44,758 nt of DNA from the NCBI GenBank assembly GCA_016191015.1, contig JACPPM010000192.1, forward strand, positions 1 through 44,758. Reading direction: 5' to 3'. Source of the DNA: Acidobacteriota bacterium. Lineage in GTDB: Bacteria > Acidobacteriota > CAIWXX01. A model generated the notes under the pieces. The model did no database searches and was not told the DNA's origin. It saw nothing but the letters and a program-made list of their open reading frames with translations. Positions 11,784 through 30,262 of the stretch are shown piece after piece (within the stretch, counting starts at the first letter, position 1; every line of letters starts with the position of its first letter). A program made the position numbers and the translations under genes.

Positions 11784-11847
11784 GATTTCACCTCCTTCGA
11801 ACGCCGGCATCAAGGCGTGCGGCCACCCTCTGCCGTCGTCGGCGATG

Positions 11848-12693
11848 CTACTGACCGCCCGGGAGCAGTTGCTGTTTGTTGCATCCTTCAATAACTCCGA
11901 TCGTCAGCGGCTCAAAGATCACACGTGGGCGGTAGCGGTCCACCAAGTCTTCCAGACGGGCTACGTACTCGGCCTCGATGGCATCGTCGCCCTTCAGGCC
12001 CTTCGGCGCCTGGCCGAGGAGCCGGGCATCCTTGCCCGAGTTTGTAGTGTAGAGCCTCTCCAGGCACTGGAGATCCTGTGCATAGTTCTGCCGCAGGCGG
12101 TCCACCTCGGCGACGATCGGTGAATCGTGCCGATAGGACTCCTGTGCTTCCCCCACCGCAGCCAGGAGGGTTGGCAGGGCCATGCGGAGCTCCGATCGCT
12201 TGAGGTCGAGCGGTCCGACGATCGCACCGAGCATAAACAACGGATCGTCCCCCGTCTGAAGGAAATGTTGCCCCTCATTGACCAAGAAGTACGCCGTGAA
12301 TCGCTGTCGGAGCCGGTACCCGAGCGAGAGTGACAGACCGAAAGCCAATCGTACGACCGTGGAGAGGGGACTCTGCTTCGACGCGGCCGGGAGCGTGGCC
12401 GCGAAACCAATAGGCGCGCAGGTGAGCTGCCGGGCAGCGGCCCTTTCCACCAGCCGGAGTCGATCGCGCCACTCATCTTGATCGCCTGGCTCCGACACGA
12501 CGACCATTGGCGCAATCTTGCGTCGCAGTGCCTCCCTCTCCTGCTCGCTCAGGAAGTCTTCGACGAAGTTCTTCCAGGTGTCAGAGGTGCCTTCCATTCG
12601 CCATCCCTTCGCGTCGTCGGACACCTGCGCTTCCAGATACTCACCGAGACTCCTGACCCATCGTTGCAGGAGATCAGCCGAGTCTCTACTCAT
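11848..12693 (-). CDS. Unknown protein coupled to SNF2 helicase
   Basis: A 281-residue protein. ATG 12693 has AAGGAGG five bases upstream and overlaps the end of the helicase gene by eight bases (ATGAGTAG), so the two proteins are probably made in fixed ratio. It is mostly helical and charged, with a hydrophobic centre (STVVRLAFGLSLSLGYRLRQ) too polar at its ends to call a membrane helix and a leucine-rich C-terminus. No family is recognised. Tight coupling suggests it is a helicase partner. Confidence 0.75.
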   Translation of the reverse strand: MSRDSADLLQRWVRSLGEYLEAQVSDDAKGWRMEGTSDTWKNFVEDFLSEQEREALRRKIAPMVVVSEPGDQDEWRDRLRLVERAAARQLTCAPIGFAATLPAASKQSPLSTVVRLAFGLSLSLGYRLRQRFTAYFLVNEGQHFLQTGDDPLFMLGAIVGPLDLKRSELRMALPTLLAAVGEAQESYRHDSPIVAEVDRLRQNYAQDLQCLERLYTTNSGKDARLLGQAPKGLKGDDAIEAEYVARLEDLVDRYRPRVIFEPLTIGVIEGCNKQQLLPGGQ

Positions 12694-14836
12694 CCAGCCT
12701 CCTTCGGCGTGGCTTCCATTGCCGGCTTGCTGCCGCTTCCGTCGGATCGAGGTCGGCTCCAAACTGTCGGAAGCGACGGCGGAGGTCATCCTCGTTCTCG
12801 CTGCTCAGGATGATCTGGCCGATGCCGAGGACATCCTCAGGGGTCGCGTATCGGGAATGGATCCCCTCCAGTTGGAAGATCCCCGGAATCACTCGGCCCA
12901 ACACGTCCTCGCAGACGTTCAGTTTCTCGCGGAGTGCCTGATAGACGTACTCCTCGATCGTGCCCCGGGTGATGTAGTTTTCAATGATGACGGTCCTGCT
13001 CGCTTGGCCGATCCGATCGACACGGCCGATCCGCTGCTCCACACGCATCGGGTTCCACGGAAAATCGAAGTTCACGACCACGTGACCGTCCTGGAGGTTC
13101 AGCCCCTGGCCACCGGCGTCTGTGGAAATGAACCAGGCGGCGTGCTTGGACTTCCGGAACCGCTCGATCTGGTGCTTCTTGTCCTCCTGAGACAGGCCGC
13201 CGTGATAAGAAATGATCTGGGGTTTGCGAAGGATGCCCAACTCGCGGAGCACCGGCTTCCCGAGTTGTCGGAGCCGAGAGTCAATCGCCTTCTGGGTTTC
13301 GCGGAATTCCACGTAAACGATGACGCGTCCAAAGCGGCGGGCGAGCAGCGGCAGCTGCTCCATCAAGTGATCGGTCTTCTGATGTTTGCCGGCACCCCAG
13401 TCCGCTGTCTCGTAGCGAGTGGCGATTTCCGCCAGCCTCCGATCCAATGCCTGGAGATCGTCGGCTGCGCGCGTTGCCGACGCGAGTTGTGTCACTCTCT
13501 TGCGGAGGGGACCGGCGAGGGTCTTGAGCGCGGCACGCGGATGGCTTGCGAGCTCGCGAAGAACCAGCATCGAGATGAGGACGAGCTGAGAGACGGCTTC
13601 CTCTCTGCCCGATGGTCTGCGGAGGAAGTTCGCGGAGCCGAGGTGCCAGCGATAGATGCCGCGCAGCAGCGAGAGCACATTGTCGTAGAGATCACGCTCG
13701 TCATCAGAGCGCTCCACGATCTCCACAGTCTCGATCTGTCTCCGCGGGAAGCTAAGATCAGTCTCATGCCGCTGGCGCTGATTCAAGACCGCCGTGAGCT
13801 TCGACTGGAGGTCTACGGCGTTTGCGATCTGTCGATCGTCTCGCATGAAGTTCTCGGCAAAGACCGCCTTCTGGCCAAGGTGACCGGGCCGTACAATGTT
13901 GATCTGATGGAAAATGTCGTACCCGCTGTTGTGGACCGGCGTCGCCGTCAGCAGCAGGCGAAACCGGGCGCGCAGGGCGTAGACGAATCGGTATCGCGCC
14001 GTGTCATCGTTGCGGAGCCCGTGCCCCTCGTCCACCAGCAGCAAGCCCCATCGCCGCGAACGGAGAATCTTCGCCCGGCGTTCTTCCTTCGCTGTGTCGA
14101 TGGATAGGAGCAGGTAGGGATCGGACTTGAGCGCCTCAGGCCTATAGCGGCCCTCCTCCTTCGTGATCTCCAAGTTCGACCACGCCGCGATTTCACCGGC
14201 CCACTGACTGCGCAGGTTCGACGGCACCAGGATGAGGCAGGTCAGCACGGGGTCGCGCCGCAGCAGCTCAGTGAGCACGAGGATCGCGGTAATGGTCTTG
14301 CCGAGCCCGACCTCATGGATCATGATGCCGTTCCCGAGCATTCGTTCGACGATTCTCTGCGCCTCCTCGATCTGATGGCGGAAGGCGGTCTGGCTCCGCT
14401 CGACGTCGCCGTGTGAGGAGAGGAAATGTCGCGGGCGGGCTTCAGCGTAGGCGTAGGCAGTCTCGATTAGAGCGGCCTGCCGGGCCGAGGAGACATCAGA
14501 CCGCAGCAGATCAAAAAGTGCCTTGTCCTGGGGGACCTCCGCCGGTTCGGCATCGATCACGACCTCGTGATGTTTGCGACGGTGCAGTTCCCGGCGGACG
14601 GCACGGGCCAGGCTCGAATATTCGATCTCCTTTTGCGTCCAGTCAAGTCCCCACCAGGCACAGTCGTCCAGGAGCTCGCGCCGCGTGACGTCTTGCAGAG
14701 ATGTCATGAAGCCATCGATGGAGACCATGTCGCTCGCGCTGAACCGGCCGAGAGCGCGTAGATAGGCCCCGAGGCGTGACAGGGGAATGTCACGGCCGGC
14801 CGGACTACGTCGTTCTTCCAGAATGAGATGTGGCAT
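12686..14836 (-). CDS. SNF2/RapA-like superfamily 2 helicase
   Basis: A 716-residue ATPase. Motifs in order: Walker A HEVGLGKT (174-181), DEGH (269-272), LLTATP (295-300), then the helicase C domain with YHGG, STDAGGQGLNLQ (571-582) and RVEQRIGRVDRIGQ (598-611). The layout matches SNF2-type DNA translocases such as RapA and the helicases of several defence systems. The ~150-residue N-terminal region is unassigned, and there is no nuclease domain. ATG 14836 follows GAGG and overlaps the upstream membrane gene by 32 bases. It presumably remodels nucleoprotein together with the adjacent unknown gene products (inference). Confidence 0.95.
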   Translation of the reverse strand: MPHLILEERRSPAGRDIPLSRLGAYLRALGRFSASDMVSIDGFMTSLQDVTRRELLDDCAWWGLDWTQKEIEYSSLARAVRRELHRRKHHEVVIDAEPAEVPQDKALFDLLRSDVSSARQAALIETAYAYAEARPRHFLSSHGDVERSQTAFRHQIEEAQRIVERMLGNGIMIHEVGLGKTITAILVLTELLRRDPVLTCLILVPSNLRSQWAGEIAAWSNLEITKEEGRYRPEALKSDPYLLLSIDTAKEERRAKILRSRRWGLLLVDEGHGLRNDDTARYRFVYALRARFRLLLTATPVHNSGYDIFHQINIVRPGHLGQKAVFAENFMRDDRQIANAVDLQSKLTAVLNQRQRHETDLSFPRRQIETVEIVERSDDERDLYDNVLSLLRGIYRWHLGSANFLRRPSGREEAVSQLVLISMLVLRELASHPRAALKTLAGPLRKRVTQLASATRAADDLQALDRRLAEIATRYETADWGAGKHQKTDHLMEQLPLLARRFGRVIVYVEFRETQKAIDSRLRQLGKPVLRELGILRKPQIISYHGGLSQEDKKHQIERFRKSKHAAWFISTDAGGQGLNLQDGHVVVNFDFPWNPMRVEQRIGRVDRIGQASRTVIIENYITRGTIEEYVYQALREKLNVCEDVLGRVIPGIFQLEGIHSRYATPEDVLGIGQIILSSENEDDLRRRFRQFGADLDPTEAAASRQWKPRRRRLDE

Positions 14837-15290
14837 GGATCCTCAACCATGCTTTCGCTTGCTGCCAAAGCATGAAGAAGTTGACGGTCGGCCCAACCCC
14901 TCTGGCCATGTAAGCGAGCAAGTTGAGACCGAACCACACCCAGCTCAGGCAAAGCTGCCATAGAGCCAGCGGCTCGGGTTGCTCACCCTGTGCCGAAGTG
15001 AAAATTTCCTCGGGACCGACGAATAGGACTACTACGATTGTGGCGAGAAACGCGACGTTTAGGAAGTGGAGAAGAAACATCCAAATCGAGAAAAGTTGCC
15101 CGGAAAAGGGTTTGAGCTTCTTCGCCACGTACTCACTCTCCGGAGCGTTCTCTGACCAATCCGGCTTGATCGCGTCGCGCAGTTGCGCGGCTAGGTCCTG
15201 CATCTCCTTCCGCTCGAGGAGAGCCCAAAGGACGGCCCAGCCCGTGCTGTTCAGGACAAGGCCGAACAGTGTGATCAGGTCAACCTTCAT
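14805..15290 (-). CDS. Three-helix membrane protein
   Basis: A 161-residue protein from ATG 15290 (the frame is open to 15332). Membrane helices lie at ~4-26 (LITLFGLVLNSTGWAVLWAL), ~68-91 (FLLHFLNVAFLATIVVVLFV) and ~108-129 (LCLSWVWFGLNLLAYMA), with a charged ~40-residue loop between the first two. It overlaps the upstream gene by 11 bases and the helicase by 32. A membrane protein between an unknown cytoplasmic protein and a helicase suggests a membrane-tethered complex or effector, as in Zorya-like systems, but no sequence relationship to ZorA/B is apparent. Confidence 0.75.
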   Translation of the reverse strand: MKVDLITLFGLVLNSTGWAVLWALLERKEMQDLAAQLRDAIKPDWSENAPESEYVAKKLKPFSGQLFSIWMFLLHFLNVAFLATIVVVLFVGPEEIFTSAQGEQPEPLALWQLCLSWVWFGLNLLAYMARGVGPTVNFFMLWQQAKAWLRIHATSHSGRTT

Positions 15291-16101
15291 ACCCTGCCTC
15301 GCTCGGGATCTCATAGATACTGAAGAGCTCATCCCTGATCTTGTTGTCCTTCACCACGTCGACCACGTTCTTATGCACCCAAAGTGTGTTGTCCGTCTTA
15401 CTGATCAAGGCCGCGTCGCGAAGGGGGACCTTTTCTCGTAGCCGAAGCTCTTCGATCAGGGAGTTAGCATCGAGGAGGTACCGACGGGAAGGCACGCGAA
15501 AGATCGGTCCATATGCTCTGTTGAGCTCGTACTCCCTCTCGATCATGCGGTGGACCGGATCCAGCCCGCGCAGGATGCGATAGATCCGGCGGAGAGCGAT
15601 CGGGAAAAGAAGCGCTTTGCGGAACCGGGCAATGAAGTCGGATGCCATGTACGAAGCACGGAGCTTTGTCGTGTTGAAGATCAGTGCAAGATCGTCGTCG
15701 TCGGGGAGCTGGAACGCCCAGATGTATTCCACGTATTGGCGCATGCGCCAGAGAAGAAGCTCACGGGGGGTGATGAAAGGTAGTCTGCCGTTCAGCCACA
15801 GGCCATACTCGCGTTGCGACACCATCACCAGTCGCTCGCGCACGAACTTGAGCAGGAACGTGCGCTTGGCGGTCTCGTCCGCATCGGGCTGGTACGCCGC
15901 CTTCATTGAGGCGATCGTGCACTGAGGGCGCGCGTCCTCGGGAATGCTGTTGGCGAACACGAGAAGGACGTTGTCCAATATCTCGGGGACGACCGGTTCC
16001 TTGAGACGTAGAAAGTTCTCTGCCTCTGCCCGCAGGGACTCCTCTTCCGCTTCCCTCTCTTTGCCTTCGCGAGGTCCCTCGCTTTTCTTCTGTCTGGTCA
16101 T
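15280..16101 (-). CDS. Unknown soluble protein, first gene of unit B
   Basis: A 273-residue protein with a very charged N-terminus (~1-30, rich in K, E and R), then an all-helical body with aromatic-rich stretches (YVEYIWAFQLPDDDDLALIF) and a C-terminal segment NTLWVHKNVVDVVKDNKI. No signal peptide or membrane helix. ATG 16101 has GGAGG six bases upstream and lies 43 bases beyond the conserved box B, giving a normal 5' leader. No family is recognised. Confidence 0.78.
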   Translation of the reverse strand: MTRQKKSEGPREGKEREAEEESLRAEAENFLRLKEPVVPEILDNVLLVFANSIPEDARPQCTIASMKAAYQPDADETAKRTFLLKFVRERLVMVSQREYGLWLNGRLPFITPRELLLWRMRQYVEYIWAFQLPDDDDLALIFNTTKLRASYMASDFIARFRKALLFPIALRRIYRILRGLDPVHRMIEREYELNRAYGPIFRVPSRRYLLDANSLIEELRLREKVPLRDAALISKTDNTLWVHKNVVDVVKDNKIRDELFSIYEIPSEAGYEG

Positions 16102-16574: not shown

Positions 16575-19500
16575 CTAGTAGTCGCCTCCTCGATCTCGAT
16601 CGATCCGCCTCGCTCGGTCCTTCAGTTGCCCGGTGCGCTTTTCGAGGATCTCCCGGGCGTGGACCCACATTGGGCTGGGGCGCTCCCCAAGCAGCGCGGT
16701 GAGAGAGAGTTGGTCAGCAGGATCATCCAACAGGATTGGATCGCCGAGCGCCAGGATCCCCTCCAACACCACCCATTTGCGTGGGGAGTTCAACCCCTGG
16801 AAGCTGTTCATGAGAAGTCTGATGGAGTGCAGCCTGGATCGGCATCTCAATGACCGTTGGGCAGCGCGCCTCACTTCGAACTCACCGTCCTCGAGAGCGA
16901 GCTGTCTGAGTACTTCGTCCAGTTCGGCATGCGAAGACCATCCCGCCATCTCTGCGGCTGCTTCACGAACAAGGGGATCCGGTGCTTCAGCCATCTTCCT
17001 TAGGGACCGGCCAATTGTCGCGTGATCGCCCACATGCCTCAGTGCCCGCCCGATGCTCCAACGAACCCACGATTGCCTTTCACGCGTCATGTGATCGAGG
17101 AGGAACTCATTGGCTTGGCCAGGATTAAGGTCCAGCAGAAGTTGAGGTAGTGGATCCACATCTTCCCACCCCTCCTCCATCGCCCTCGTTCCCAAGCGGA
17201 ACGCAATCTCAACGTCGCGCTTGGCAAGACCGGTGATTGCTGCTGTGATTCGGTCTGGATCGGGGGAATCTCCGAATCCCTTGAACACCTCCTCGACCAA
17301 GAATTCTCGCACGGCGCGGTCGTCAGAGTCGCCGAGAGCCTCCAATGTCAGATTGGTGACTCGCGGTCGTCCTGATTCCTGGATGTGCCGCCAAATGCTG
17401 TTAGCTATGGAAACGCGATCAGCATTGTTCCTGGCGTTGATCCACTCATGGTTAAGCAGCTGCAAGCGCAGGGCAGCTCCTACGTCGTTAGATCTAAGGC
17501 CCGACACGGACTCGCGCGCCGCTCCCACCGCCGAATCGGTCCCTATCTCGAGCAATGTCTTGAATGCGGCCCTTCGATACTTCGGCTGCGCCAGCTGGCT
17601 TCTGAGGAATTCAACTGTCACGCCATCGGAGGCTCCAAGCATCCTCAAGATCTTGACGAGCACTCCTACCTCGCTGCTTGCCGGGTCGATCCGAGTCAGG
17701 GCTTGTTGGATATCACTGACGGCATCCTTTCTGCCAGACAGGCCCAGCACCCAGAGTGCGCCGACTCGCAACATGGGATCGTCCTTCTGCAAAAAGAGAA
17801 CCGCCTCACGAACGATATCTTCGCCAAATGGTTGACTGCCAGCGAGGAGCCACTTAAGCTCACGACTGTATCCGGCTGGATACAGAAGGATTGACCGCCC
17901 AATCACGTCGCACTCCTGCAACGACGCAAGGCTCAACAGGGTAGCCCTCCGTACGACCACCGCTTCAGGTGTGTCCGGCCTGGCTCGCCCGGTTGCCATT
18001 TCGGCAAGGATCTTTCGGGTATCTGTGTCCGGGTTCACCAGTGACCAAGTTAGGCCGGCGAGAAGGAACTGAAACTCTGGCCTCCGAAGCCAGGAATTCG
18101 TCAACTGAGTTATGCCGACGCCTCCGATCTTGAAGAGAAGATCCCCTAACTGCTTGGCCTCAACGTATCCAGCAAGGCCGATGTTCGTAGCTCTTACTGC
18201 GATCCGGAGGAGCTTCTCTTCCAGGGACGTACCCGAGAGGGTCCAGATTCTCTCTAGAGTCGTCGGGGACCATGTTTTGTTGAAAGTCTCGAGCAGTATG
18301 GAGAGGCGTGGATCGTGCTGAGAAGGATCCAAGCTGAGGCATTGGTCTATCACTTGATCTAGGGCTTCGAGGAGAACGCGCGTGGTTTCGTCGTCCATTT
18401 CGTCCGGTATGGATTGATAGAGGTCGGCGAGGAACACTCGATCACTCAAGTCAAATCCGAATCTCAGACGGAGGGCAATCTGCGTCTGACCAGGTGAACG
18501 CAGCAGAAGCTCGGGCAGCCACCACTTCACGAAGAACCTAAGCATGTTGCGATTCATTCCGGGCAGAGACTCAATGGTCCAAGCGGGACTGATGCGGGCC
18601 GCAGCAGCAAGTGCCTCGGCCGCGACCAAGCCTGCTTCGTGTTTCATCCACCCCGAGAGCCTGGCGACGTCGGTCGCATCACCGTAACGACGGATGCATC
18701 GGCAAAGCGGTCTGAGAGCTTCATCCCGTGGATTGCCGAGTAGCCGATCCCTGTGCTTCTGCCACATCTCGGAACCGATCGGCATAGGCATGCTCGCCAG
18801 CAGGAATGCGAGCTGATCGAGAAGTGGGGATGACGGTTCGGAGTTGGAGAGCTCACCATCCAACCACCCCGGGTTCTCCTGTATACAAGCACGGAGCGCT
18901 CCCCATGACATCAGATGGCGATGAACCCATTCCTGACCCTGTTCGGACTCCAACCCTGCCGCGTTTCGGGAATGGATCTTCCAGAGACGATCCAAGATGG
19001 ACTCATCGCCGACACCATGCTTGGCCAGAACCAACATGGACGCCTCCTGCATCACCTCGTGCGGATCGAACAACCAGTCGAGCGCAGCCCTCAGGACAGG
19101 CTCCTGCTCCCACTCCGCTATCAGATGCATGGTCGACGCTATCAGGTAAACACACACATGCTCCGTCCGGTCGGTGACGTTCCGCAGCCGACTCTCGAGA
19201 AGCGGAATCATCCTAGAACCGAGTCGTGGAAGCAGGTTCTTGTACGTCCAATCGGGGTACCTGGCCTCGTATGTTTCGATCAGAGAAAGAGCGTCGGGGA
19301 TCAACTGCATCCTCCTATCGCAGAGTATCCACACCAGGTCCTCCAACAGGCGATCGGTGATCAGCAACTCTCGTCGCGCGGGCATCTCGTCGATGGAGCG
19401 GACCCGCTCCACGAGCTGAGATGTCGTGATGGAGTTGTTGCGGCGCTGTTCTATGAGACCCTTTGCTATTGACCAAACCAACAGGCGGTTGTGCCACATC

Positions 19501-21191
19501 TCCACTCGACCCTCATCTACTAGTCGCGTGAGCCATCCTGCCGCCTCGAGATGGCTCTGGATTTCGTCAGTGATACCAACCTCCGCGAGAGCAGTCTGAG
19601 TCCAGGGGTAAGAGGTCTTCGGGTCGAGTATCGTGAGCGCAAGAGCACCGAGGCGTGCCGCGGAACCGGGGAGGATCGGCCCCCGACGGTACTCTTCTAT
19701 GCGGCCCCAGAACTTCTCAATGATCTGATGCTCCAAATTGGGGTGCCATCCCTCCGACTCGGCAAGATCACAAAACAGCTTCGCAAGGAGTGGTCGTCGG
19801 AGAGTGTTGTTCAGCCTCAGCGGAAGACGCGTCCAGTCGTGGCCGTTGAGTTCGAGATAGACATGCATTTCTTGGTTGGTAAAGTCGTCGACTCTGAGAA
19901 GAGACGCCTGTTCGGGATGGGACCTCGCTACTGCCCGACCGATCTCCAAGGTTGTGCCCAATCCCAGGTGGAATCCCGGCCAATCCGAGGTTCTTTCGAC
20001 GAGAGCGTGGGCCTCCTCGGGGTCTCGCACATCATCAAGAAGGACTGTTACTGAAGGCGTCTGAGTGAGGCCGCCTGCCGAGGCTAATCGAGCGGGTAGC
20101 TCGTGCAGCGGTGGGGATGCGGCGCGACCGAGCATTTCTTGCCAGATGACTCTTGCCGCTTCATTGAGGTCGTCATCGACGTTACCGGTGGCCCTGACGA
20201 AAACCACTAGACTGCCGGGCGCACTCATCACCTTGCCTACGGCACAGAGACGCCATGTCTTCCCTTGCCCGCTCTCGCCAGCGACCACCAGCACGGACGT
20301 AGAGGCTGACCAAGTCGGCTGAGGCCGCACGTCCATTTCCGGACGGTAGTGATTGCGTCGAAAGGACCTTTCCAACCATCGGATTTGGGTCTCGCTTAGC
20401 CTAGCTAGGTCACCGAGGGATTGTCCCGTCAGCCCAACCTTCGAGAGCAACTCCTGCGCCGTGACCCGAGTCTCACCTCTCCCCCCCAGTTCCAGGATGA
20501 GGCCGCAGAGTTCCCTGCGCTTCACATCTATATCTTCCCGAAATGTTATGAGCTGTGACAGTAGGCCCCCGATATCTCGCTCAAGATCTGCGATGGTGCG
20601 CTGACCATGGAACTTGAACCGGGAGAGCAAGTGCCACAGCTTTCGATATGTGACTTGAGACGACTCTCCGTAGACGCGATCCCCTAGGACCTCCCTCACG
20701 CGATCAGCTATCCATATGAAGAAATCACGCTCTGTCTGCTTCACTCCGTTCCCGAACTCCTGAAGAGTCTTAGGATCCAGGGCGGAGAGCCCATCGTCTG
20801 GAACCATCTGGCAAAGTTGTTCGAAGAACTGCATTCCGTTGGTCCATTGACCCCTGCGCCCTTCGGTGACAAACCTATACTCGACCAAATCACCCAGATT
20901 CGAGTCATCCACGGCCAGGTATAGATCCGGCAAAACTCTTTCCACAAGATCGACCAGGGACCAAGTTCCCTGCGAGGACTTCGCTTTCCACTGCTCGACG
21001 ATGCGTCGGTGAGGACTCTGCACCTGGATGTCGCCGCCGCCGTGTCGGGGCTCGAGTATGAGCGAGGTGCTCTCAATCTCGCCGGTGTCGGTCACCGGCA
21101 AGTCAACGCAGAGGTAGGCCGCCCAGTGGATACTCCCCAGAATCTGGTAGAGGATGCCATAGATCGCGGCAGATCCTCCGGATTGCGGCAC
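16575..21191 (-). CDS. STAND-type NTPase with Cap4/DUF4297-like nuclease N-terminus and helical repeats (Avs-like)
   Basis: A 1538-residue protein starting at GTG 21191 behind GGAGGAGG. Residues 4-20 (GGSAAIYGILYQILGS) and GGDIQV at 52-57 followed by VEQWKAK (65-71) look like a PDDEXK nuclease of the DUF4297/Cap4 kind, with D54 and Q67-x-K69 as likely catalytic positions. A P-loop follows, Walker A GESGQGKT (305-312) and Walker B VTVLLDD (381-387). The remaining ~1000 residues contain HEAT-like helical repeats (for example VGALWVLGLSGRKDA, LVREAAAEMAG). This nuclease-NTPase-repeat order is that of Avs antiphage sensors, which recognise a phage protein with their repeats and then cut DNA. The ligand here is unknown. 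It ends unit C. Confidence 0.82.
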   Translation of the reverse strand: MPQSGGSAAIYGILYQILGSIHWAAYLCVDLPVTDTGEIESTSLILEPRHGGGDIQVQSPHRRIVEQWKAKSSQGTWSLVDLVERVLPDLYLAVDDSNLGDLVEYRFVTEGRRGQWTNGMQFFEQLCQMVPDDGLSALDPKTLQEFGNGVKQTERDFFIWIADRVREVLGDRVYGESSQVTYRKLWHLLSRFKFHGQRTIADLERDIGGLLSQLITFREDIDVKRRELCGLILELGGRGETRVTAQELLSKVGLTGQSLGDLARLSETQIRWLERSFRRNHYRPEMDVRPQPTWSASTSVLVVAGESGQGKTWRLCAVGKVMSAPGSLVVFVRATGNVDDDLNEAARVIWQEMLGRAASPPLHELPARLASAGGLTQTPSVTVLLDDVRDPEEAHALVERTSDWPGFHLGLGTTLEIGRAVARSHPEQASLLRVDDFTNQEMHVYLELNGHDWTRLPLRLNNTLRRPLLAKLFCDLAESEGWHPNLEHQIIEKFWGRIEEYRRGPILPGSAARLGALALTILDPKTSYPWTQTALAEVGITDEIQSHLEAAGWLTRLVDEGRVEMWHNRLLVWSIAKGLIEQRRNNSITTSQLVERVRSIDEMPARRELLITDRLLEDLVWILCDRRMQLIPDALSLIETYEARYPDWTYKNLLPRLGSRMIPLLESRLRNVTDRTEHVCVYLIASTMHLIAEWEQEPVLRAALDWLFDPHEVMQEASMLVLAKHGVGDESILDRLWKIHSRNAAGLESEQGQEWVHRHLMSWGALRACIQENPGWLDGELSNSEPSSPLLDQLAFLLASMPMPIGSEMWQKHRDRLLGNPRDEALRPLCRCIRRYGDATDVARLSGWMKHEAGLVAAEALAAAARISPAWTIESLPGMNRNMLRFFVKWWLPELLLRSPGQTQIALRLRFGFDLSDRVFLADLYQSIPDEMDDETTRVLLEALDQVIDQCLSLDPSQHDPRLSILLETFNKTWSPTTLERIWTLSGTSLEEKLLRIAVRATNIGLAGYVEAKQLGDLLFKIGGVGITQLTNSWLRRPEFQFLLAGLTWSLVNPDTDTRKILAEMATGRARPDTPEAVVVRRATLLSLASLQECDVIGRSILLYPAGYSRELKWLLAGSQPFGEDIVREAVLFLQKDDPMLRVGALWVLGLSGRKDAVSDIQQALTRIDPASSEVGVLVKILRMLGASDGVTVEFLRSQLAQPKYRRAAFKTLLEIGTDSAVGAARESVSGLRSNDVGAALRLQLLNHEWINARNNADRVSIANSIWRHIQESGRPRVTNLTLEALGDSDDRAVREFLVEEVFKGFGDSPDPDRITAAITGLAKRDVEIAFRLGTRAMEEGWEDVDPLPQLLLDLNPGQANEFLLDHMTRERQSWVRWSIGRALRHVGDHATIGRSLRKMAEAPDPLVREAAAEMAGWSSHAELDEVLRQLALEDGEFEVRRAAQRSLRCRSRLHSIRLLMNSFQGLNSPRKWVVLEGILALGDPILLDDPADQLSLTALLGERPSPMWVHAREILEKRTGQLKDRARRIDRDRGGDY

Positions 21192-21882: not shown

Positions 21883-22782
21883 TCAGACGGAGCTGAACAG
21901 TTCGTGAACGATGTGAATTGGCGTGAAACTGGCGATCTTGCGTGAGTACATGAAGTACCGTGCGCCCCTGCTGGTGTTCGGCGGGAGAATCGCTGCGCCT
22001 TTCAGAATATCTTTCGGACGGGCTTCGTGGAATAAGAGTTCGGCTTCTTTCGGAATTGGCACAGCCTCGACGTCCCAGAGAGCATCGCCACAGGTTATCC
22101 ATCCGGCCCGTGCCATGGCGCGCAACTGAAGAAGATGTCCGTAGGCGTGGTCGATTCTGCCGCGCGTCACAGTCGCGGAGAATCGTCCCCCCAGTACCGA
22201 AACAAGTGTGAGATAGGACCTCAGCACGCCAGCACCGTGGCCATCGGATGTTGCGATGTCCCGAGTCGTACACCAGTGTTCCCATACCGGTCCGCCTTTC
22301 TTGGCAAGATAAACAGGGTGATCGTAGTCTTGACGACGGTCGTCCTTCTTGGGATCGCCCGGATCTTTTGCCTTCCGATCGAGAATATGGCCGCGTGACG
22401 CTCCCTCCACGTAGCCGACGAATGAGTGTCGTTTCATTGCTTCGGAGGCGTGAGTGCTTTTCAGCGCTACAGTCTTGACGATCGGGCCATCGCAGTGGCT
22501 GAAGGTGGGCACGTAGCTCTTCCTGGCAGAATCATAAGTAATTCCGGCCCATCCCGGGCGGCCCTGTTCGTCACGAAATAGTCCGGCGGCAGCGACAAGG
22601 TGGCACAGGACGTGCCAACTCCCTCGGCCGCCTGATCTCGTTCCAGGGCCACCGCAGGTCAGCACAAGGTTCCAATCGACAAACATTCTCTGCGATTTGC
22701 CAAAGTTGGTGCGGGAGTCGACAAGATTTCCGGATACGTCGGTTTCAAATTGATACAGTCCACGTTTGGGCATGTTCTTCAC
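21883..22782 (-). CDS. Unknown protein coupled to MfnB-like enzyme
   Basis: A 299-residue product from GTG 22782, whose start overlaps the MfnB-like gene stop by four bases (GTGA); an ATG nine bases later is an alternative. It contains conserved-looking aromatic and histidine-rich motifs (SHCDGPIV, GPVWEHWCTTRD, ATSDGHGAGVLRSY, GRIDHAYGHLLQL) that could form a metal or nucleotide site, and no signal peptide or membrane helix. I do not recognise the family. The overlap implies it acts with the MfnB-like protein. Confidence 0.75.
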   Translation of the reverse strand: MKNMPKRGLYQFETDVSGNLVDSRTNFGKSQRMFVDWNLVLTCGGPGTRSGGRGSWHVLCHLVAAAGLFRDEQGRPGWAGITYDSARKSYVPTFSHCDGPIVKTVALKSTHASEAMKRHSFVGYVEGASRGHILDRKAKDPGDPKKDDRRQDYDHPVYLAKKGGPVWEHWCTTRDIATSDGHGAGVLRSYLTLVSVLGGRFSATVTRGRIDHAYGHLLQLRAMARAGWITCGDALWDVEAVPIPKEAELLFHEARPKDILKGAAILPPNTSRGARYFMYSRKIASFTPIHIVHELFSSV

Positions 22783-23954
22783 CCACGCTTTTCCCTGGGG
22801 TCGGCCTCTTCGAACTCTTGCACTAGACCCCTAACACGCGGACGCTTGATGTCGTTGCTCTTCCGAATACCGCTGCTATGACGGGCGGCACCGCCGAAAC
22901 AGATGAGATCGACTCGTGATTTGACGTAAGGCTTGATTTCAGCACATCGGATCGACCCCGCAATCCAGAACTCGATGCCTTTGTGGTGGGCTGTGTTGGC
23001 CAGTTCCAGCGTATCATTCTCCGAGTAATAGTCCCGGTAACGGCGCCCGGCATGCTTTTCGAAAGTGTCGATCAAGATTCCCTGCCACTTCGCCTTGGAT
23101 GTGAGTTCGATCGCGCGATGAGCAATTTCCATGGGGCGATCACCGTTTGACTCTACGCCGATATCAGGGAAAAACACGGCGACGAGTGGATAACGAGGGG
23201 GATCGTTCAGCGGCTTGGGAAGGAGCCTTTGCGCGGTCGCTTTGTCAACGAAAGAACGCACGAGCTTCATCTGGCGAGAAACCTCGGCGCCTGCCATATC
23301 TTGTTTTGTGATGTCAAGATTGGCGAATCCGACCTTGATCACATCGGCACCGGCATGGATGGCCGCCACGACCTTCGAAGCAGTGAGGGCGGCAGTGGAA
23401 CGTGTATCCACTTGCCCGGTCTTCGCGGACCGAACAATCTGGGGACTTTCGGAAACATTGGTCGAGACATAGACATATTCACCAATCTGTTTGCGGATGG
23501 AGAAGATTTCGTCAACCGACGCAGGTCCTAACGCCTGCTCAATGTGTTCGACATCCACGACGACGCGATCGTATGCGACTAGAGTGGGGATCTCCTGACC
23601 TTCAAAGCCGCTGATCAGACAGAGGGAGTTCACCGGGCGGGGGTTCGCCGAGCCGGTCCAGGCGCTCATCCGGAAACCGTGTCGGTGATGTGAACCCCGT
23701 CCAGATGCGTCGATGGCCGCGCGACGTAGCTCGAGAAGTTTGCGGCCTCCTGGATCCACGTACCGGAGTGCTTCGTTGATTGTTTTCCAGCGACGCTTGT
23801 TATCCCGGGAAATCCGCTGAATTTCGCGGATGACTTGGCTTCCCGCATCGATGGCCGCTTGGAGTGCCAAGCCGCTGTTTTCAGGGGTTCCGACTTTGAG
23901 AAGAATGCTGAGATCGGTAGGGCCACGTTTGACGAGATACTTGTGTCTGGGCAT
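22779..23954 (-). CDS. MfnB-like (5-formylfuran-3-yl)methyl phosphate synthase-related TIM-barrel protein
   Basis: A 391-residue protein from ATG 23954 (AAGGGG five bases upstream). The C-terminal ~240 residues match the MfnB/UPF0264 barrel, with HAGADVIKVGFA (~200-211), GILIDTFEKHAG (~292-303), IAGSI (~331-335) and LICFGGAARHS (~350-360). MfnB converts two glyceraldehyde-3-phosphate to the furan precursor of methanofuran using a Schiff-base lysine. Here the N-terminal half (~150 residues) is an unusual extension, and the expected first lysine site is not clear, so activity may differ. It sits among genes for a modified peptide and a STAND sensor, with no other methanofuran gene in view. Confidence 0.75.
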   Translation of the reverse strand: MPRHKYLVKRGPTDLSILLKVGTPENSGLALQAAIDAGSQVIREIQRISRDNKRRWKTINEALRYVDPGGRKLLELRRAAIDASGRGSHHRHGFRMSAWTGSANPRPVNSLCLISGFEGQEIPTLVAYDRVVVDVEHIEQALGPASVDEIFSIRKQIGEYVYVSTNVSESPQIVRSAKTGQVDTRSTAALTASKVVAAIHAGADVIKVGFANLDITKQDMAGAEVSRQMKLVRSFVDKATAQRLLPKPLNDPPRYPLVAVFFPDIGVESNGDRPMEIAHRAIELTSKAKWQGILIDTFEKHAGRRYRDYYSENDTLELANTAHHKGIEFWIAGSIRCAEIKPYVKSRVDLICFGGAARHSSGIRKSNDIKRPRVRGLVQEFEEADPREKRG

Positions 23955-24235
23955 GATCACCCCTTAGAAAAGTGGTTGTTCCGACGTCGGAGTGGGATAC
24001 CCCAACATGTTGCGTTCGAAAGGCGCGATGGGGTGGGATCGGGGTGGCAGTGGAGGAGGTGAAGTATGCCGAGAGGAGCACATCCCAGCAGCTCGCCACG
24101 GCTATTCCTTCGCCGTGGCTCGCCTGAGGCCGCTCTGCGCCCACGTGATGGGCGCTCCTGGCTCTCCGGTTTCGTTGCTGCCGGGTCGCCTCCCCGGTTT
24201 GAAACTACTCCCACAAAAGCGCGATCCAACACAAC
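23955..24235. other. Gap with hairpin and an uncertain 91-codon frame
   Basis: An inverted repeat of eight bases (GCCACGGC at 24095-24102, GCCGTGGC at 24112-24119) around a nine-base loop could form a hairpin in the transcript, with no following T-run. A minus-strand frame from TTG 24232 stays open to 23957; it begins three bases after the preceding gene and its stop overlaps the GTG at 23960, which is suggestive, but its arginine-rich composition and weak start make it doubtful. Confidence 0.4.
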
Positions 24236-25102
24236 CTAATGTGCATCGACCTGAATGATTTGCAGCGCGGTCGAGTATGCATGGCCCTCCACTGCATAGT
24301 AGAGTTGCAGTCGACCCGCCACAGTCGGCTGCAGGTCGTCGATGACCCATTCGATTGGCGCCCACGTGCGGACATCCCGCACCCTACTCCCGAGCACATG
24401 ATAGCCTGGTGTGAGGGGATCATCGGCCGGCATGGTCCAGAGGGGAACGCTCTTGGTTAGCTTACAGGTCGGGGGGACCAGAAGGATGATCTGCACCGAT
24501 CGAAGGCCCATGCCCTTGTGAAGAAAGGCCTTGATTCGGATCCGGGCACACTTGCCGACCTCCCATGCGGTCGAGCCAGCATCGTCAATTAGGTCAAGGT
24601 CGGGAAGTGAGAGCCGGGAAATATCCCGAAAGCTCAAGAGCGCACGCACCAAGAGCGCGATGCCTACAATGAACGGCAGAAAGACGAGAAGTCCCGCCGG
24701 AGACGGTCTAGCGGGCGGCATTGAGGCATTCCCGGCCATCTTGGAAAGAACGGCAGCGCAAATGAAAAAGCCACCCGGATAAAGTACAGCCCCTCGGACA
24801 CCTATTCTTCCCGAGGTCTGGCGGACCGCCTTCAGGGCGGCTTGGCACTCCCGTACCTCGCGGTTCATTTCGCATAGCTGTTGGTCTGGCGTACAGCTCG
24901 CCCTGAGCCCGGATTGGAGCCAAGCTATTCTCTCTGCGATCCTCTTTCGACTACGCGCAACTGAGGCACCGGCTACCGCGCGGGCGGGGCCAAGCAGCGA
25001 GAGCGAAAGAGCGCAAACGGCAACGAGGGTTGCAACAAGAGTGATGGAGAGGCGGAAAACGGTTTCATACAAAGCGGGTAGATGGCGCAGGACAGAGTCC
25101 AT
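24236..25102 (-). CDS. Membrane protein with C-terminal soluble domain
   Basis: A 288-residue protein; ATG 25102 follows AAGGAGG at six bases. Membrane helices lie at ~16-38 (ITLVATLVAVCALSLSLLG), ~104-122 (GAVLYPGGFFICAAVLSKMA) and ~136-157 (GLLVFLPFIVGIALLVRALL), with a charged helical loop between the first two containing three cysteines. The last ~120 residues form a soluble, beta-rich domain (SVQIILLVPPTCKL). No transporter family is recognised. Placed directly downstream of the precursor peptide, it could export or sense the peptide product or give immunity (inference). Confidence 0.75.
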   Translation of the reverse strand: MDSVLRHLPALYETVFRLSITLVATLVAVCALSLSLLGPARAVAGASVARSRKRIAERIAWLQSGLRASCTPDQQLCEMNREVRECQAALKAVRQTSGRIGVRGAVLYPGGFFICAAVLSKMAGNASMPPARPSPAGLLVFLPFIVGIALLVRALLSFRDISRLSLPDLDLIDDAGSTAWEVGKCARIRIKAFLHKGMGLRSVQIILLVPPTCKLTKSVPLWTMPADDPLTPGYHVLGSRVRDVRTWAPIEWVIDDLQPTVAGRLQLYYAVEGHAYSTALQIIQVDAH

Positions 25103-25177
25103 TGGGTGCCTCCTTTGTTATGTCGGCCGGCGTATGGGGCAGCAAATTTTCGCCCTGTTAGAAGACGCAACACCGAT

Positions 25178-25227
25178 TGCCTGAATGCGAACGGACCCCC
25201 GGGCAAGTCCTCGTTCGCATTCAGGCA
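25178..25227 (-). promoter_or_regulatory. 16-bp perfect inverted repeat after the precursor-peptide gene
   Basis: TGCCTGAATGCGAACG (25178-25193) is an exact reverse complement of 25212-25227, with an 18-base loop. In the minus direction it lies 19 bases after the precursor stop and before the membrane-protein gene. There is no poly-T tract, so it is not a classical terminator. Such intercistronic stems often protect the upstream message and lower expression of downstream genes, which would favour high output of a RiPP precursor. Confidence 0.7.
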
Positions 25228-25246
25228 TCGTCAAAAGCGGTTCACC

Positions 25247-25399
25247 TCATTGAAGCAGGCAACCGCAACACTGTTCGTCGTTGATGCAAACGCAGGAGCA
25301 GAGCCCTTCGCCGATCTCATTGTTTTCAGGGAACATTAGCTCGGTTTCGGCGAGGATCTGCGGGTCAGCTGGAACCAGTTGCACGTCTGGCTCACTCAT
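25247..25399 (-). CDS. Cys-rich RiPP precursor peptide (50 aa)
   Basis: The 50-residue peptide has an acidic N-terminal leader (~1-31, with ETELMFPENNEIGEG) and a C-terminal core GLCSCVCINDEQCCGCLLQ carrying six cysteines in 14 residues (34, 36, 38, 44, 45, 47). AAAGGAGG lies about nine bases before the ATG. It overlaps the end of the radical SAM/SPASM gene by eight bases. Short acidic leader, Cys-rich tail and an adjacent SPASM maturase together mark a ribosomally made, post-translationally modified peptide, most like ranthipeptide or sactipeptide precursors, where the enzyme makes thioether links to cysteine. The exact modification is unknown. The core lacks the regular spacing of the SCIFF family. 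Confidence 0.85.
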   Translation of the reverse strand: MSEPDVQLVPADPQILAETELMFPENNEIGEGLCSCVCINDEQCCGCLLQ

Positions 25400-26714
25400 C
25401 TTGTTCGCCTCCTTTCTCCCGGGTGAGTAGTGCCACAATTTGATCGTAAAGAACCGCCCGATTGAAGTGGCAGCGCGACCATCCAATCCTACGTAGGTCC
25501 GGGCAATCACCCGCGCAATGCCACCGTGCAAAGCAGGCACAGCACGCCTCAGGAACGGCGTTCAACTCAGCGATATGATTCAACCGCTCCTGATCGAGAA
25601 TGATCTTGCCCGAATTCGCCTGAATAGTTCCATAACCATAGTCCGTTCCGCCGTGATCTCGGTGGCAGGCCGTGATCTGACCATCGACACAGACGGCGAA
25701 TGAGGGGATGGTCATTGCTCCACAGTAACGTGTGATGAGTCGCTTGAGCGAAGGCCCCGACGAGGTCACTCGAATGCCAAGCTCCGCCCCTATCTCCTCT
25801 GCCTGCTTGAACTTCTCGAGGAACACGGTCAGTTCCGGAGGCTGCAAAGTCGGGGACACCAGTGCTCGGCCCAAAGGAACCAGCGGCTCGAATGCGACCA
25901 CAAATCCTCGTCCGAACTCGCAGGCAAACCGCTGGATGATCATGGGAAGGTGATCGACACTCTTGGCCGAGACGGTGCTCCGGATTCCTAGGCGCAGGGT
26001 CGGGACCGTGAGAAAGTGCCTGATGGTTTCGCACACGACAGCGTACGAACCCCGCCCCGCGCGGTTCGGCCGGTGAAGATCCTGAATGTTCTGGTCCCCG
26101 TCGAGCGAGACCGTGAGGTGGTCGAAATGGGCGGCAATAAACTGCCTGCGATCAGGACCATAATACCCGTTTGTGGTCATGGACAGGAAAAGCCGGTCAA
26201 CTCCGGAATCGGGGCTGACAACCAGATGCTTGAGTGTCACCACTGCGCGAGTGAAGAGATCCCATGGCATGGTGGGCTCCCCTCCGACGGCGAAGGAAAC
26301 CGATAGCGTCCTTCGCGGGGTTTTGGCCGCGGCGGCAGCTGCGTATTCGATCGCAGTCTGGAGGGTACTCCAATTGGCATCTCGGGGCTTGTCGGCTTCC
26401 GCGTGGCAGTAGAGGCAGGCCAATGTGCAGTTTCGGGTCAGACCGATACCAAGATGAAAAGCATTCGGGGGAGCGGCGACCGGCGCCACGGCCTTAGAGA
26501 GAGCAGCACTCAGCCGTGTGCTTATATGCGGCGGCGTTCTGCCCGTCTGAATAGCTTCGGTGGCGCTCGCGTTTAGTAGTAGCGCGAGTCGGAGGGTGGG
26601 AGCGAAGAGTACGTAGGGTGGTCTGCCTGCGGAGGACAGGAGCCAGTAGTCATGACCGTACCATTGTGCATGGGAATCACAGACTGCGGACGTCGGGTGA
26701 TCCGCCACGTTCAC
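25392..26714 (-). CDS. Radical SAM/SPASM peptide maturase
   Basis: A 440-residue enzyme from GTG 26714, chosen for the GAGGAG six bases upstream. The radical SAM cluster motif NCTLACLYCHAE gives cysteines 96, 100 and 103. A glycine-rich GGEPTMPWD and SLDGDQNIQDLHRP motif follow, as in SPASM maturases. The C-terminus holds the SPASM cysteines (CVDGQITACHRDHGG, ACCACFARWHCAGDCP, WSRCHF) that bind two auxiliary [4Fe-4S] clusters. It probably installs thioether or C-C crosslinks in the Cys-rich peptide encoded just downstream, with which it overlaps by eight bases. N-terminal residues ~1-90 may include the leader-binding domain. Confidence 0.95.
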   Translation of the reverse strand: MNVADHPTSAVCDSHAQWYGHDYWLLSSAGRPPYVLFAPTLRLALLLNASATEAIQTGRTPPHISTRLSAALSKAVAPVAAPPNAFHLGIGLTRNCTLACLYCHAEADKPRDANWSTLQTAIEYAAAAAAKTPRRTLSVSFAVGGEPTMPWDLFTRAVVTLKHLVVSPDSGVDRLFLSMTTNGYYGPDRRQFIAAHFDHLTVSLDGDQNIQDLHRPNRAGRGSYAVVCETIRHFLTVPTLRLGIRSTVSAKSVDHLPMIIQRFACEFGRGFVVAFEPLVPLGRALVSPTLQPPELTVFLEKFKQAEEIGAELGIRVTSSGPSLKRLITRYCGAMTIPSFAVCVDGQITACHRDHGGTDYGYGTIQANSGKIILDQERLNHIAELNAVPEACCACFARWHCAGDCPDLRRIGWSRCHFNRAVLYDQIVALLTREKGGEQDE

Positions 26715-26934: not shown

Positions 26935-27819
26935 CTATCCTTCGACAAACGTGACGTTGAGGCTTCTCATGAATTCCTTGATGATCTGGATGTGCACGCA
27001 GCCGCCGACATGAAGGAATGCGCTGTCCTGCACCCGCTTCGGCAGTCCCTGCCTGCGAACCTGTTGGTCTACGTCGAAGTCAAGATCCAAGTGCCCTGTC
27101 ATGGATTGGATGCCCCAGACTCTCCCCTGTGAATCGAATGCCGGCCCGCCGCTCTGTCCGCGAAGCCCCGGGGTACTCATTTCAAAACCGATCAGTTCCG
27201 CGCCTTGCCCAATCAAGTGACGGGTAACCATCCCTTCTATGGGGAATCGGGGGGTTGTATGCTGACCGGTCTGCGTCCATTCAATCTCGTCGCGATCAGG
27301 GTCGTAGCCGAAGTCGGTGAACTCGACAAAAGGGAATCCAAGTCTGCAGAGAGATTTTCCGGGTTTCAGGGAGCCGGAGTCGGGTGCGAAAACCGGGAAC
27401 TCGGTGCAGAGCAGCTTCTCAAAGCCTTCAAACTTGAGGAGGGCAATGTCATAGGTCTTATGCCTCTGCATTGTGAGGGTTTGAAAGCTGTCTAGGCAGT
27501 CAACGAATTTCACTTTCATCTGGGCCAGTTCTCTGCGGTCCAGGTGATACTTCCGTTCGAGTTCCCGACGGACCTGCTTCGCCTTCTTTCCATCCGCATA
27601 CGCCCCGAGTTCGCCTTTGAACAGCCGATAGCGCTCGTTGATGTGGTCGGTGGCCATGATTTGGTCAGCAACATGTCCACATGTGACCGCCCAACCATCC
27701 GCGTTGACGAAGAAGATGGTGGCGGCGCCAGGCTGGACGATGGCTGAGCCGTATGTGCGTGAGATGAAGAAGATGGGACGTGTGAATTGAGCAGCTTTCT
27801 CGATTGCGTCTACGTACAT
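26935..27819 (-). CDS. Cytoplasmic trypsin-like serine protease
   Basis: A 294-residue protein with the chymotrypsin-fold triad: H49 in AVTCGHVAD, D124 in TYDIALLKF and S223 in GLRGQSGGPAF. ATG 27819 follows GGAGG at five bases and directly abuts the stop of a 14-residue leader peptide. There is no signal peptide, unlike DegP/HtrA, and no PDZ domain. An insertion at ~60-110 is long and charged. Next to a radical SAM maturase and Cys-rich precursor, it is a good candidate for leader-peptide removal, or alternatively an effector protease of a defence system. Both roles are inference. Confidence 0.88.
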   Translation of the reverse strand: MYVDAIEKAAQFTRPIFFISRTYGSAIVQPGAATIFFVNADGWAVTCGHVADQIMATDHINERYRLFKGELGAYADGKKAKQVRRELERKYHLDRRELAQMKVKFVDCLDSFQTLTMQRHKTYDIALLKFEGFEKLLCTEFPVFAPDSGSLKPGKSLCRLGFPFVEFTDFGYDPDRDEIEWTQTGQHTTPRFPIEGMVTRHLIGQGAELIGFEMSTPGLRGQSGGPAFDSQGRVWGIQSMTGHLDLDFDVDQQVRRQGLPKRVQDSAFLHVGGCVHIQIIKEFMRSLNVTFVEG

Positions 27820-29339: not shown

Positions 29340-29573
29340 TCGAATCTCCTTCTTGCTTTGGAAAGTCGCTGCGAAACGCCTCTCCACGGAATATGCTAAC
29401 CGACGCGCCGGCCGATACAAGGGAGTAGTCGCGGCTCAGTTGAGAGGGAGCGCCTACGCGCCCGACTCCAATGGCACGTGAATAGGAGGAGATGATGGCG
29501 TGGCGTATGCTGAGGGATAGTGGTTGACAGAACTCCGTACAGACTGTACAGTGATGCGGAGGAGGCGACGATC

Positions 29574-29819
29574 ATGGCTCATCGCATGGGAGCAGAACAG
29601 GCCCGGCAGCACTTCGCGGAGATCATCGCGAACGCGGAGCGGGGCCGCGTGACGATTATCGAAAGACACGGAGAGCCGCGGGCGATGGTGGTGCCCCTGA
29701 CGAGGTCTCCCGCCAGCCCGGCTTCGGTGACGTTCACGGCCTTGGCCGGAACCGGTGCCGGTCTGTGGGGGAGTGATCCCACTCGTACGATCGAGGCGCT
29801 CCGTGAGGAGTGGGAGTGA
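29574..29819 (+). CDS. Phd/YefM-family antitoxin
   Basis: An 81-residue protein from ATG 29574 behind GGAGGAGG. AEQARQHFAEIIANAERGRV followed by IIERHGEPRAMVVPL is the Phd/YefM DNA-binding fold. The variable C-terminus (LRHGD-free, ending IEALREEWE) would bind and neutralise the toxin. It overlaps the VapC gene by four bases, the usual antitoxin-first order, and probably autorepresses the operon. Confidence 0.9.
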   Translation: MAHRMGAEQARQHFAEIIANAERGRVTIIERHGEPRAMVVPLTRSPASPASVTFTALAGTGAGLWGSDPTRTIEALREEWE

Positions 29820-30262
29820 GCATTCTCGAGAGCATCCCGGCCGGGGCGACAGTTGTCGTCGATAGCGGACCGATCATTCTCGTCCTCGACGGGACTGATC
29901 GCACTCTTGCGGGGCACTACCTTCCGGTGTTCAAGGCGGCCGAGCGGGGTCGCATCGCAATCGCGGTCTCGACGATCACAGTGGCCGAGGTGATGACCGG
30001 GCCGCTGCGACACGGCGATCGCATCCTGGCCGAACGATACAGGCAAGTGATGTCGTCCTCGACAAACTGGCGTGTTGTCGATTTCACGCTCGGGCTTGCC
30101 GGTCTTGCGGCAGAACTGCGGGCCAAGTACCGGTTGAAGCTCCCGGACGCCATCCAGCTCGCCACTGCGATCGACGCCGGTGCCCATGCGCTCATTACCC
30201 ACGATCGCGACTTCTCCGCGATCAGCGAGTTGCCGGTTATCAGCGGAGTCCGTCGGCGGTGA
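29816..30262 (+). CDS. vapC: VapC-type PIN-domain toxin
   Basis: A 148-residue ribonuclease starting at GTG 29816 (GAGGAG five bases upstream, GTGA overlap with the antitoxin). The PIN catalytic acids are visible: D16 in VVVDSGPII, E58 in TVAEVM, D111 in LPDAIQLAT and D130/D132 in THDRDF. VapC toxins cleave specific tRNAs or rRNA when released from their antitoxin. Its end overlaps the converging propeller gene by 23 bases. Confidence 0.92.
   Translation: MSILESIPAGATVVVDSGPIILVLDGTDRTLAGHYLPVFKAAERGRIAIAVSTITVAEVMTGPLRHGDRILAERYRQVMSSSTNWRVVDFTLGLAGLAAELRAKYRLKLPDAIQLATAIDAGAHALITHDRDFSAISELPVISGVRRR

What the first reader, a model, noticed from the sequence alone, without database searches (positions are those of the whole stretch)
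25247..26714. Cys-rich RiPP precursor with dedicated radical SAM/SPASM maturase
Core GLCSCVCINDEQCCGCLLQ has six cysteines in 14 residues after an acidic leader, and its start overlaps the maturase end by eight bases. The gene order (enzyme before peptide) and core spacing do not match families I can name.
Basis: partly seen in the sequence, partly recalled or inferred. Interest (0 to 1): 0.85.

Follow-up and report, generated by a model that had tools for sequence, protein, structure and literature searches.

The report
New cysteine-rich modified-peptide gene pair
A rare two-gene cassette, found in five bacterial phyla, pairs a radical enzyme with a tiny cysteine-packed peptide that it probably staples into a ringed natural product, and it matches no family in the reference libraries searched.

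Summary
A 50-aa ORF (25247-25399, -) ends in six Cys within 14 residues. It has a good Shine-Dalgarno site and overlaps by 8 nt the stop of a radical SAM/SPASM gene (25395-26714, -). The core is CxC[I]xxExCCGCφφQ-COOH with a leader motif φxF.E(N). Less related maturase loci lack it. The six enzymes form one clade (100/98), and the two core subtypes follow its two sub-branches. The conserved unit is two genes; no protease or transporter travels with it. The enzyme scores far below every NCBIfam equivalog cutoff (best: PapB ranthipeptide maturase, 105 against 340 bits); its closest solved fold is the SCIFF maturase CteB. The core contains an invariant Cys-X3-Glu, the spacing of PapB crosslink sites. 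Best reading: a new Cys-rich RiPP subfamily, most likely with ranthipeptide-type Cys-Glu thioether(s). The chemistry, the RRE and the biological role are inferred. Several copies sit near defence or toxin-antitoxin genes, without a tested background rate.

The parts
25395..26714 (-). Radical SAM/SPASM maturase, 440 aa from GTG 26714 (the ORF can extend to TTG 26807)
   Evidence: PF04055 E 2e-12; NCBIfam best NF047865 PapB 104.7 bits, below the cutoff of 340; Foldseek top hit CteB 5WGG/5WHY
26406..26429 (-). CX3CX2C radical SAM cluster motif (C96, C100, C103)
   Evidence: invariant in 20 aligned maturases
25470..25724 (-). SPASM domain, CX13GX4C...CX2CX5CX3C...C (C331, C350, C391, C394, C400, C404, C415)
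   Evidence: all seven Cys invariant in A1 and A2; TIGR04085 29.6 bits against cutoff 27
26475..26681 (-). N-terminal beta-beta-beta-beta-alpha-alpha segment (residues 12-80), possible leader-binding (RRE-like) domain
   Evidence: AF2 models; isolated-domain Foldseek search gave no significant hit, so unproven
25247..25399 (-). Precursor peptide gene, 50 aa
   Evidence: conserved in L006, L007, L008, L009, L046
25322..25339 (-). Leader motif LMFPEN, family consensus [LIM]xFxE(N)
   Evidence: precursor alignment
25259..25300 (-). Core, six Cys in 14 residues, CSCVCINDEQCCGC; holds invariant Cys38-X3-Glu42
25408..25412 (-). Shine-Dalgarno GGAGG of the precursor, inside the maturase 3' end
25174..25230 (-). 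Strong hairpin just after the precursor stop, probable transcript end
   Evidence: MFE -41.3 kcal/mol, z -3.6 against shuffles; no U tract; not a family-wide feature

Best explanation
A two-gene RiPP cassette. The maturase gene is followed, with translational overlap, by the precursor gene. The leader (acidic, motif [hydrophobic]xF.EN) docks on the enzyme's N-terminal domain. The radical SAM cluster makes a 5'-deoxyadenosyl radical that takes a side-chain hydrogen from an acceptor in the core, most likely the gamma carbon of the invariant Glu42. The thiolate of a core Cys, most likely Cys38 (Cys-X3-Glu), held at an open SPASM iron-sulfur cluster, couples to it and gives a non-alpha thioether (-2 Da). 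Other Cys may form further links or stay free to bind metal or redox partners. The leader is then removed by a host protease not encoded in the cassette. Shown here: genes, motifs, conserved pairing, selection on the core, enzyme clade. Inferred: leader docking, crosslink type and site, leader removal, role.
For: Conserved pairing in six genomes. Core codons under purifying selection: 8 synonymous against 1 nonsynonymous codon difference between window and L007, 8 against 3 for L006; none of 5000 simulations had so few amino-acid changes. The pattern is unique in each carrier genome and absent from six genomes with less related enzymes. One clade 100/98, with core subtypes following sub-branches. 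Complete CX3CX2C and seven-Cys SPASM. Best family model is PapB, a Cys-X3-Asp/Glu ranthipeptide maturase (chemistry PMC9413430). Best solved fold is CteB, the SCIFF ranthipeptide maturase. The invariant CX3E in all six cores matches the PapB spacing.
Against: The PapB score is less than a third of its cutoff, and all SPASM peptide maturases resemble each other at this level: maturases without the peptide score the same. Cys-X3-Glu could be coincidence in so Cys-dense a core. No chemistry was measured. The RRE could not be confirmed as an isolated fold. The Brocadiales copies look partly decayed or badly assembled.
Confidence: 0.62

Rival explanations
1. A RiPP pair, but the enzyme installs another modification: sactipeptide alpha-carbon thioethers, C-C or C-O bonds, epimerisation or Cys oxidation. 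The Glu is structural.
For: Radical SAM/SPASM enzymes do all of these; family scores for nif11-like, QhpD, SCIFF and DynA models are within 45 bits of PapB.
Against: No aromatic residue is conserved in the core across both subtypes (Tyr in one only), so cyclophane-type C-C links are unlikely. Cys-rich cores with SPASM enzymes and an invariant acidic residue fit non-alpha thioether chemistry best.
Confidence: 0.28
2. The peptide is mainly a metal-binding or Fe-S carrying small protein; the radical enzyme makes a small change or uses it as a cofactor source.
For: CxC and CCxC with an exact C-terminal xxQ, found in anaerobic, methanotrophic or soil lineages.
Against: Leader-core layout, strict pairing with a peptide-modifying type of enzyme and no conserved cofactor genes look like a RiPP.
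Confidence: 0.07
3. The small ORF is a chance Cys-rich reading frame.
For: Small ORFs are often spurious.
Against: Conserved in six genomes of five phyla with synonymous-biased change and its own Shine-Dalgarno sites; no such ORF in 40 Markov windows.
Confidence: 0.01

Closest known systems
PapB/PapA ranthipeptide (freyrasin), NF047865
   Same: Radical SAM/SPASM maturase; Cys-X3-Asp/Glu spacing in the core; best family hit
   Different: 105 against cutoff 340 bits; PapA has six CX3D/E motifs, here one CX3E in a core with CxC and CCGC
SCIFF / CteA-CteB ranthipeptide, TIGR03974
   Same: Six Cys in a short precursor; N-terminal domain plus radical SAM plus SPASM; CteB is the closest solved structure
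   Different: 73.9 against cutoff 425 bits; six Cys in 14 residues rather than spread over 45; precursor matches no NCBIfam model; not in Clostridia
QhpD (quinohemoprotein amine dehydrogenase maturase), TIGR03906
   Same: Makes Cys-Asp/Glu non-alpha thioethers; similar enzyme domains
   Different: Substrate is an enzyme subunit, not a tiny stand-alone peptide; 78 against cutoff 453 bits
Cys-rich peptide maturases CcpM, CefB, TIGR04463, Clo7bot
   Same: Radical SAM/SPASM enzyme beside a Cys-rich peptide
   Different: All far below cutoff (31-49 bits against 500-600); no precursor model matched
Peptide-processing modules of vWA-MoxR ternary conflict systems (PMC7159879)
   Same: Radical SAM(/SPASM) gene beside a short peptide in a defence-like context
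   Different: No vWA, MoxR or FtsH domain was found among the window neighbours tested, and the peptide has no FxSxx motif

Membership tests
Radical SAM/SPASM peptide maturases | CX3CX2C cluster motif and seven-Cys SPASM (CX9-15GX4C-CX2CX5CX3C-C) | tested here: met
Radical SAM/SPASM peptide maturases | N-terminal RRE (three beta strands plus three helices, leader binding) | tested here: inconclusive
   beta-beta-beta-beta-alpha-alpha predicted; whole enzyme matches CteB, but no significant hit for the isolated domain
RiPP precursor-maturase pair | Short leader-core ORF conserved beside homologous enzymes | tested here: met
   six of six maturases in the clade, none of the 14 less related loci inspected
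PapB-type ranthipeptide | NF047865 curated cutoff 340 bits | tested here: not met
   104.7 bits; 120.7 and 91.1 for orthologues
PapB-type ranthipeptide | Cys-X3-Asp/Glu in the core | tested here: met
   one invariant CX3E in all six cores
Ranthipeptide class | Non-alpha-carbon thioether in the product | not testable with these tools
   needs mass spectrometry and NMR
SCIFF | TIGR03974 maturase cutoff 425 bits and a SCIFF precursor model | tested here: not met
   73.9 bits; precursor matches no model
QhpD system | TIGR03906 cutoff 453 bits, with an amine dehydrogenase subunit as substrate | tested here: not met
   78.1 bits; no dehydrogenase subunit among the neighbours tested
vWA-MoxR ternary peptide module | vWA, MoxR/FtsH and peptide genes together | tested here: not met
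   no such Pfam domains among the window ORFs tested

The most novel reading that the evidence does not exclude
The cassette is a mobile defence or competition module: a multiply crosslinked poly-Cys peptide that acts as an effector or alarm signal, spread horizontally among unrelated phyla and lodged in defence islands.
Probability: 0.12. Interest if true: 0.8.

Novelty: new variant of a known kind. Interest (0 to 1): 0.52.

Why it matters
It defines a compact peptide-maturase family missing from the curated libraries searched, with an unusually dense Cys core and an exact conserved C-terminus. Six natural variants with matched enzymes make the crosslink pattern directly testable in E. coli. 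If it is a ranthipeptide it extends that class to Acidobacteriota, Planctomycetota, Chloroflexota, methanotrophs and Bipolaricaulota, and offers a small system for thioether chemistry in a core where up to six thiols compete for one acid.

Tried and rejected
A viral-contig scan with the core pattern gave 12 matches, all low-complexity or chance frames, and an alignment scan of viral contigs found no relative, so it is not phage-borne in that collection. Plasmid search: only remote SPASM enzymes, about 30% identity or less over part of the protein. The trypsin-like protease 26935-27819 as dedicated leader peptidase: rejected as a conserved part, since no window protein other than the maturase (and its own antisense frames) has a relative in the other loci. 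Export by a cluster transporter: none found among tested neighbours. The downstream hairpin as a shared regulatory element: not common to the family. Similarity between the window's 288-aa and L007's 291-aa neighbouring proteins: no BLAST match. A first RpoB comparison used wrong-strand frames and was redone; a first precursor alignment had L008 one base out of frame and was redone. Literature searches for a matching described family found none in the held library.

Full report
WHAT IS THERE. On the minus strand a radical SAM gene (25395-26714 from GTG; the open frame extends to TTG 26807) ends in ATGAGTGA, where ATG 25399 starts a 50-codon ORF ending at 25247. GGAGG sits 8 nt before that ATG. 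The peptide is MSEPDVQLVPADPQILAETELMFPENNEIGEGLCSCVCINDEQCCGCLLQ. Six Cys in 14 residues is unique among 415 small ORFs of the window, and none arose in 40 Markov copies. A hairpin of -41 kcal/mol (z -3.6) starts about 17 nt after the stop, so the transcript probably ends there; the next gene (24236-25102) would then be separate. This last point is inference.

THE ENZYME. It carries PF04055, CX3CX2C at C96/C100/C103, and the full SPASM pattern CX13GX4C, CX2CX5CX3C, C. All of these Cys are invariant in 4 orthologues and in a 20-sequence alignment. No NCBIfam equivalog is reached: PapB 104.7 of 340 bits, nif11-like 82.7 of 518.7, QhpD 78.1 of 453, SCIFF 73.9 of 425. AlphaFold2 gives pLDDT 87 and Foldseek puts CteB first (5WGG/5WHY, E about 1e-17 to 1e-16, TM about 0.65), in agreement with the sequence-profile search (5WGG, E 2e-23). 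The N-terminal segment is predicted as four strands and two helices. Alone it finds no significant PDB match, so an RRE is plausible, not shown.

THE CONSERVATION TEST. A scan of one genome per species returned 18 loci encoding relatives. The four above 38% identity (Methylococcales L006, Chloroflexi L007, Bipolaricaulis L008, Brocadiaceae L009) each have a small ORF just downstream with the same core. A profile search added a Brocadiales genome (L043/L046), where the ORF lies upstream. The cores are CSCVCINDEQCCGCLLQ (window), CSCVCISDEGCCGCLMQ (L006), CSCVCINDEQCCGCILQ (L007), GCTCISYEKCCGCIIQ (L008), GCTCIAYEKCCGCFIQ (L009) and GCTCIAYEKCCGCLIQ (L046). All end exactly at Gln, three residues after the last Cys. 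The leaders share [LIM]xFxE(N). In the last 15 codons the changes are mostly synonymous between close pairs (window against L007: 8 synonymous, 1 nonsynonymous), and over all pairs the differences by codon position are 57, 26 and 130. The core pattern occurs once in each of four carrier genomes and not in six genomes carrying less related enzymes, nor in 395 other genomes of the window's phylum. The less related maturases (L002, L010-L022) have no such peptide next door.

PHYLOGENY AND SPREAD. In a maximum-likelihood tree the six enzymes form one clade (100/98). Window, L006 and L007 (the CSCVC subtype) group apart from L008, L009 and L046 (the GCTC subtype), with 93-94% bootstrap support. The nearest outsider, L047 from another Brocadiales genome, has a different Cys-rich ORF 15 nt downstream, which hints at a wider enzyme-then-peptide group. 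The window's genome resembles Acidobacteriota by RpoB (69% to an Acidobacteria MAG, 45-53% to most others; a 134-residue Chloroflexi fragment at 79% covers only the conserved C-terminus and was set aside). Searches of 201 genomes of the Methylococcales order, 38 of the Chloroflexi order, 400 of the Chloroflexi phylum, 62 of the Brocadiales order and 100 Bipolaricaulota genomes added only the Brocadiales copies. The cassette is rare and patchy across five phyla, which suggests horizontal transfer.

CONTEXT. BLAST of all window ORFs against all ORFs of the loci found only the maturase (and antisense frames of it) shared. The conserved unit is therefore two genes. Neighbours differ: in the window a trypsin-like protease, a 1538-aa HEAT protein with a P-loop by eye and an SNF2 helicase weakly like DrmD; in L007 a BbrUII-like restriction gene, a cytosine methylase and Vsr; in L046 cas6; in L006 a VapBC pair. 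That is suggestive of defence islands, but no background rate was computed and accessory genes often sit there.

MECHANISM. PapB links Cys to the beta carbon of Asp or the gamma carbon of Glu in Cys-X3-Asp/Glu motifs, losing 2 Da per link (PMC9413430). SCIFF maturases and QhpD make related non-alpha thioethers, and in CteB a substrate Cys can reach the open SPASM cluster (PMC8326336). Every core here has an invariant Cys-X3-Glu (Cys38-Glu42 in the window). I therefore favour at least one Cys-Glu gamma-thioether. The fate of the other Cys is open. The type of link is inference from family resemblance and spacing; enzymes of this superfamily do many other reactions.

MEMBERSHIP. It is a radical SAM/SPASM enzyme (motifs met) and a RiPP-type pair (conserved pairing met). 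It is not a member of the PapB, SCIFF or QhpD equivalog families (cutoffs not met). It may work like them. Class membership as a ranthipeptide needs chemistry.

LIMITS. Only six members. The L009 maturase frame is broken, its second precursor has a stop inside the core, and the L046 maturase is truncated; these may be decay or assembly error. The genome scan used short exact peptide patterns and will have missed divergent members. Function in the cell is unknown; the defence reading is speculation.

Noticed in passing
window 9831-16101 and 16575-21191 (-): Run of minus-strand genes with an SNF2 helicase weakly similar to DrmD/BrxH (below cutoffs) and a 1538-aa P-loop plus HEAT-repeat protein; possibly an undescribed defence system.
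   Followed up: partly
window 22779-23960 (-): Protein with a 4-HFC-P synthase (MfnB-like) domain and a long N-terminal extension, next to an unmatched 299-aa protein.
   Followed up: no
window 26935-27819 (-): Trypsin-like protease (PF13365) upstream of the maturase; not conserved with the cassette.
   Followed up: partly
window 29520-30262 (+): Phd-like antitoxin (by eye) overlapping a PIN-domain toxin gene.
   Followed up: no
L047 6147-6317 and 6332-7603 (-): Distant sister maturase (Brocadiales) followed 15 nt later by a different Cys-rich peptide ending CEDLHSNSCDNCHPWTSCCDSY.
   Followed up: partly
L010 7277-7672 (+): Protein with a twin-arginine-like signal and CTCNxVCTCN repeats downstream of a radical SAM/SPASM gene in a Cloacimonadota MAG.
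   Followed up: no
L009 5648-5849 (+): Second, apparently decayed precursor copy upstream of the maturase: a TAA stop splits the core (YERCSIW*QCCGCLVQ).
   Followed up: partly
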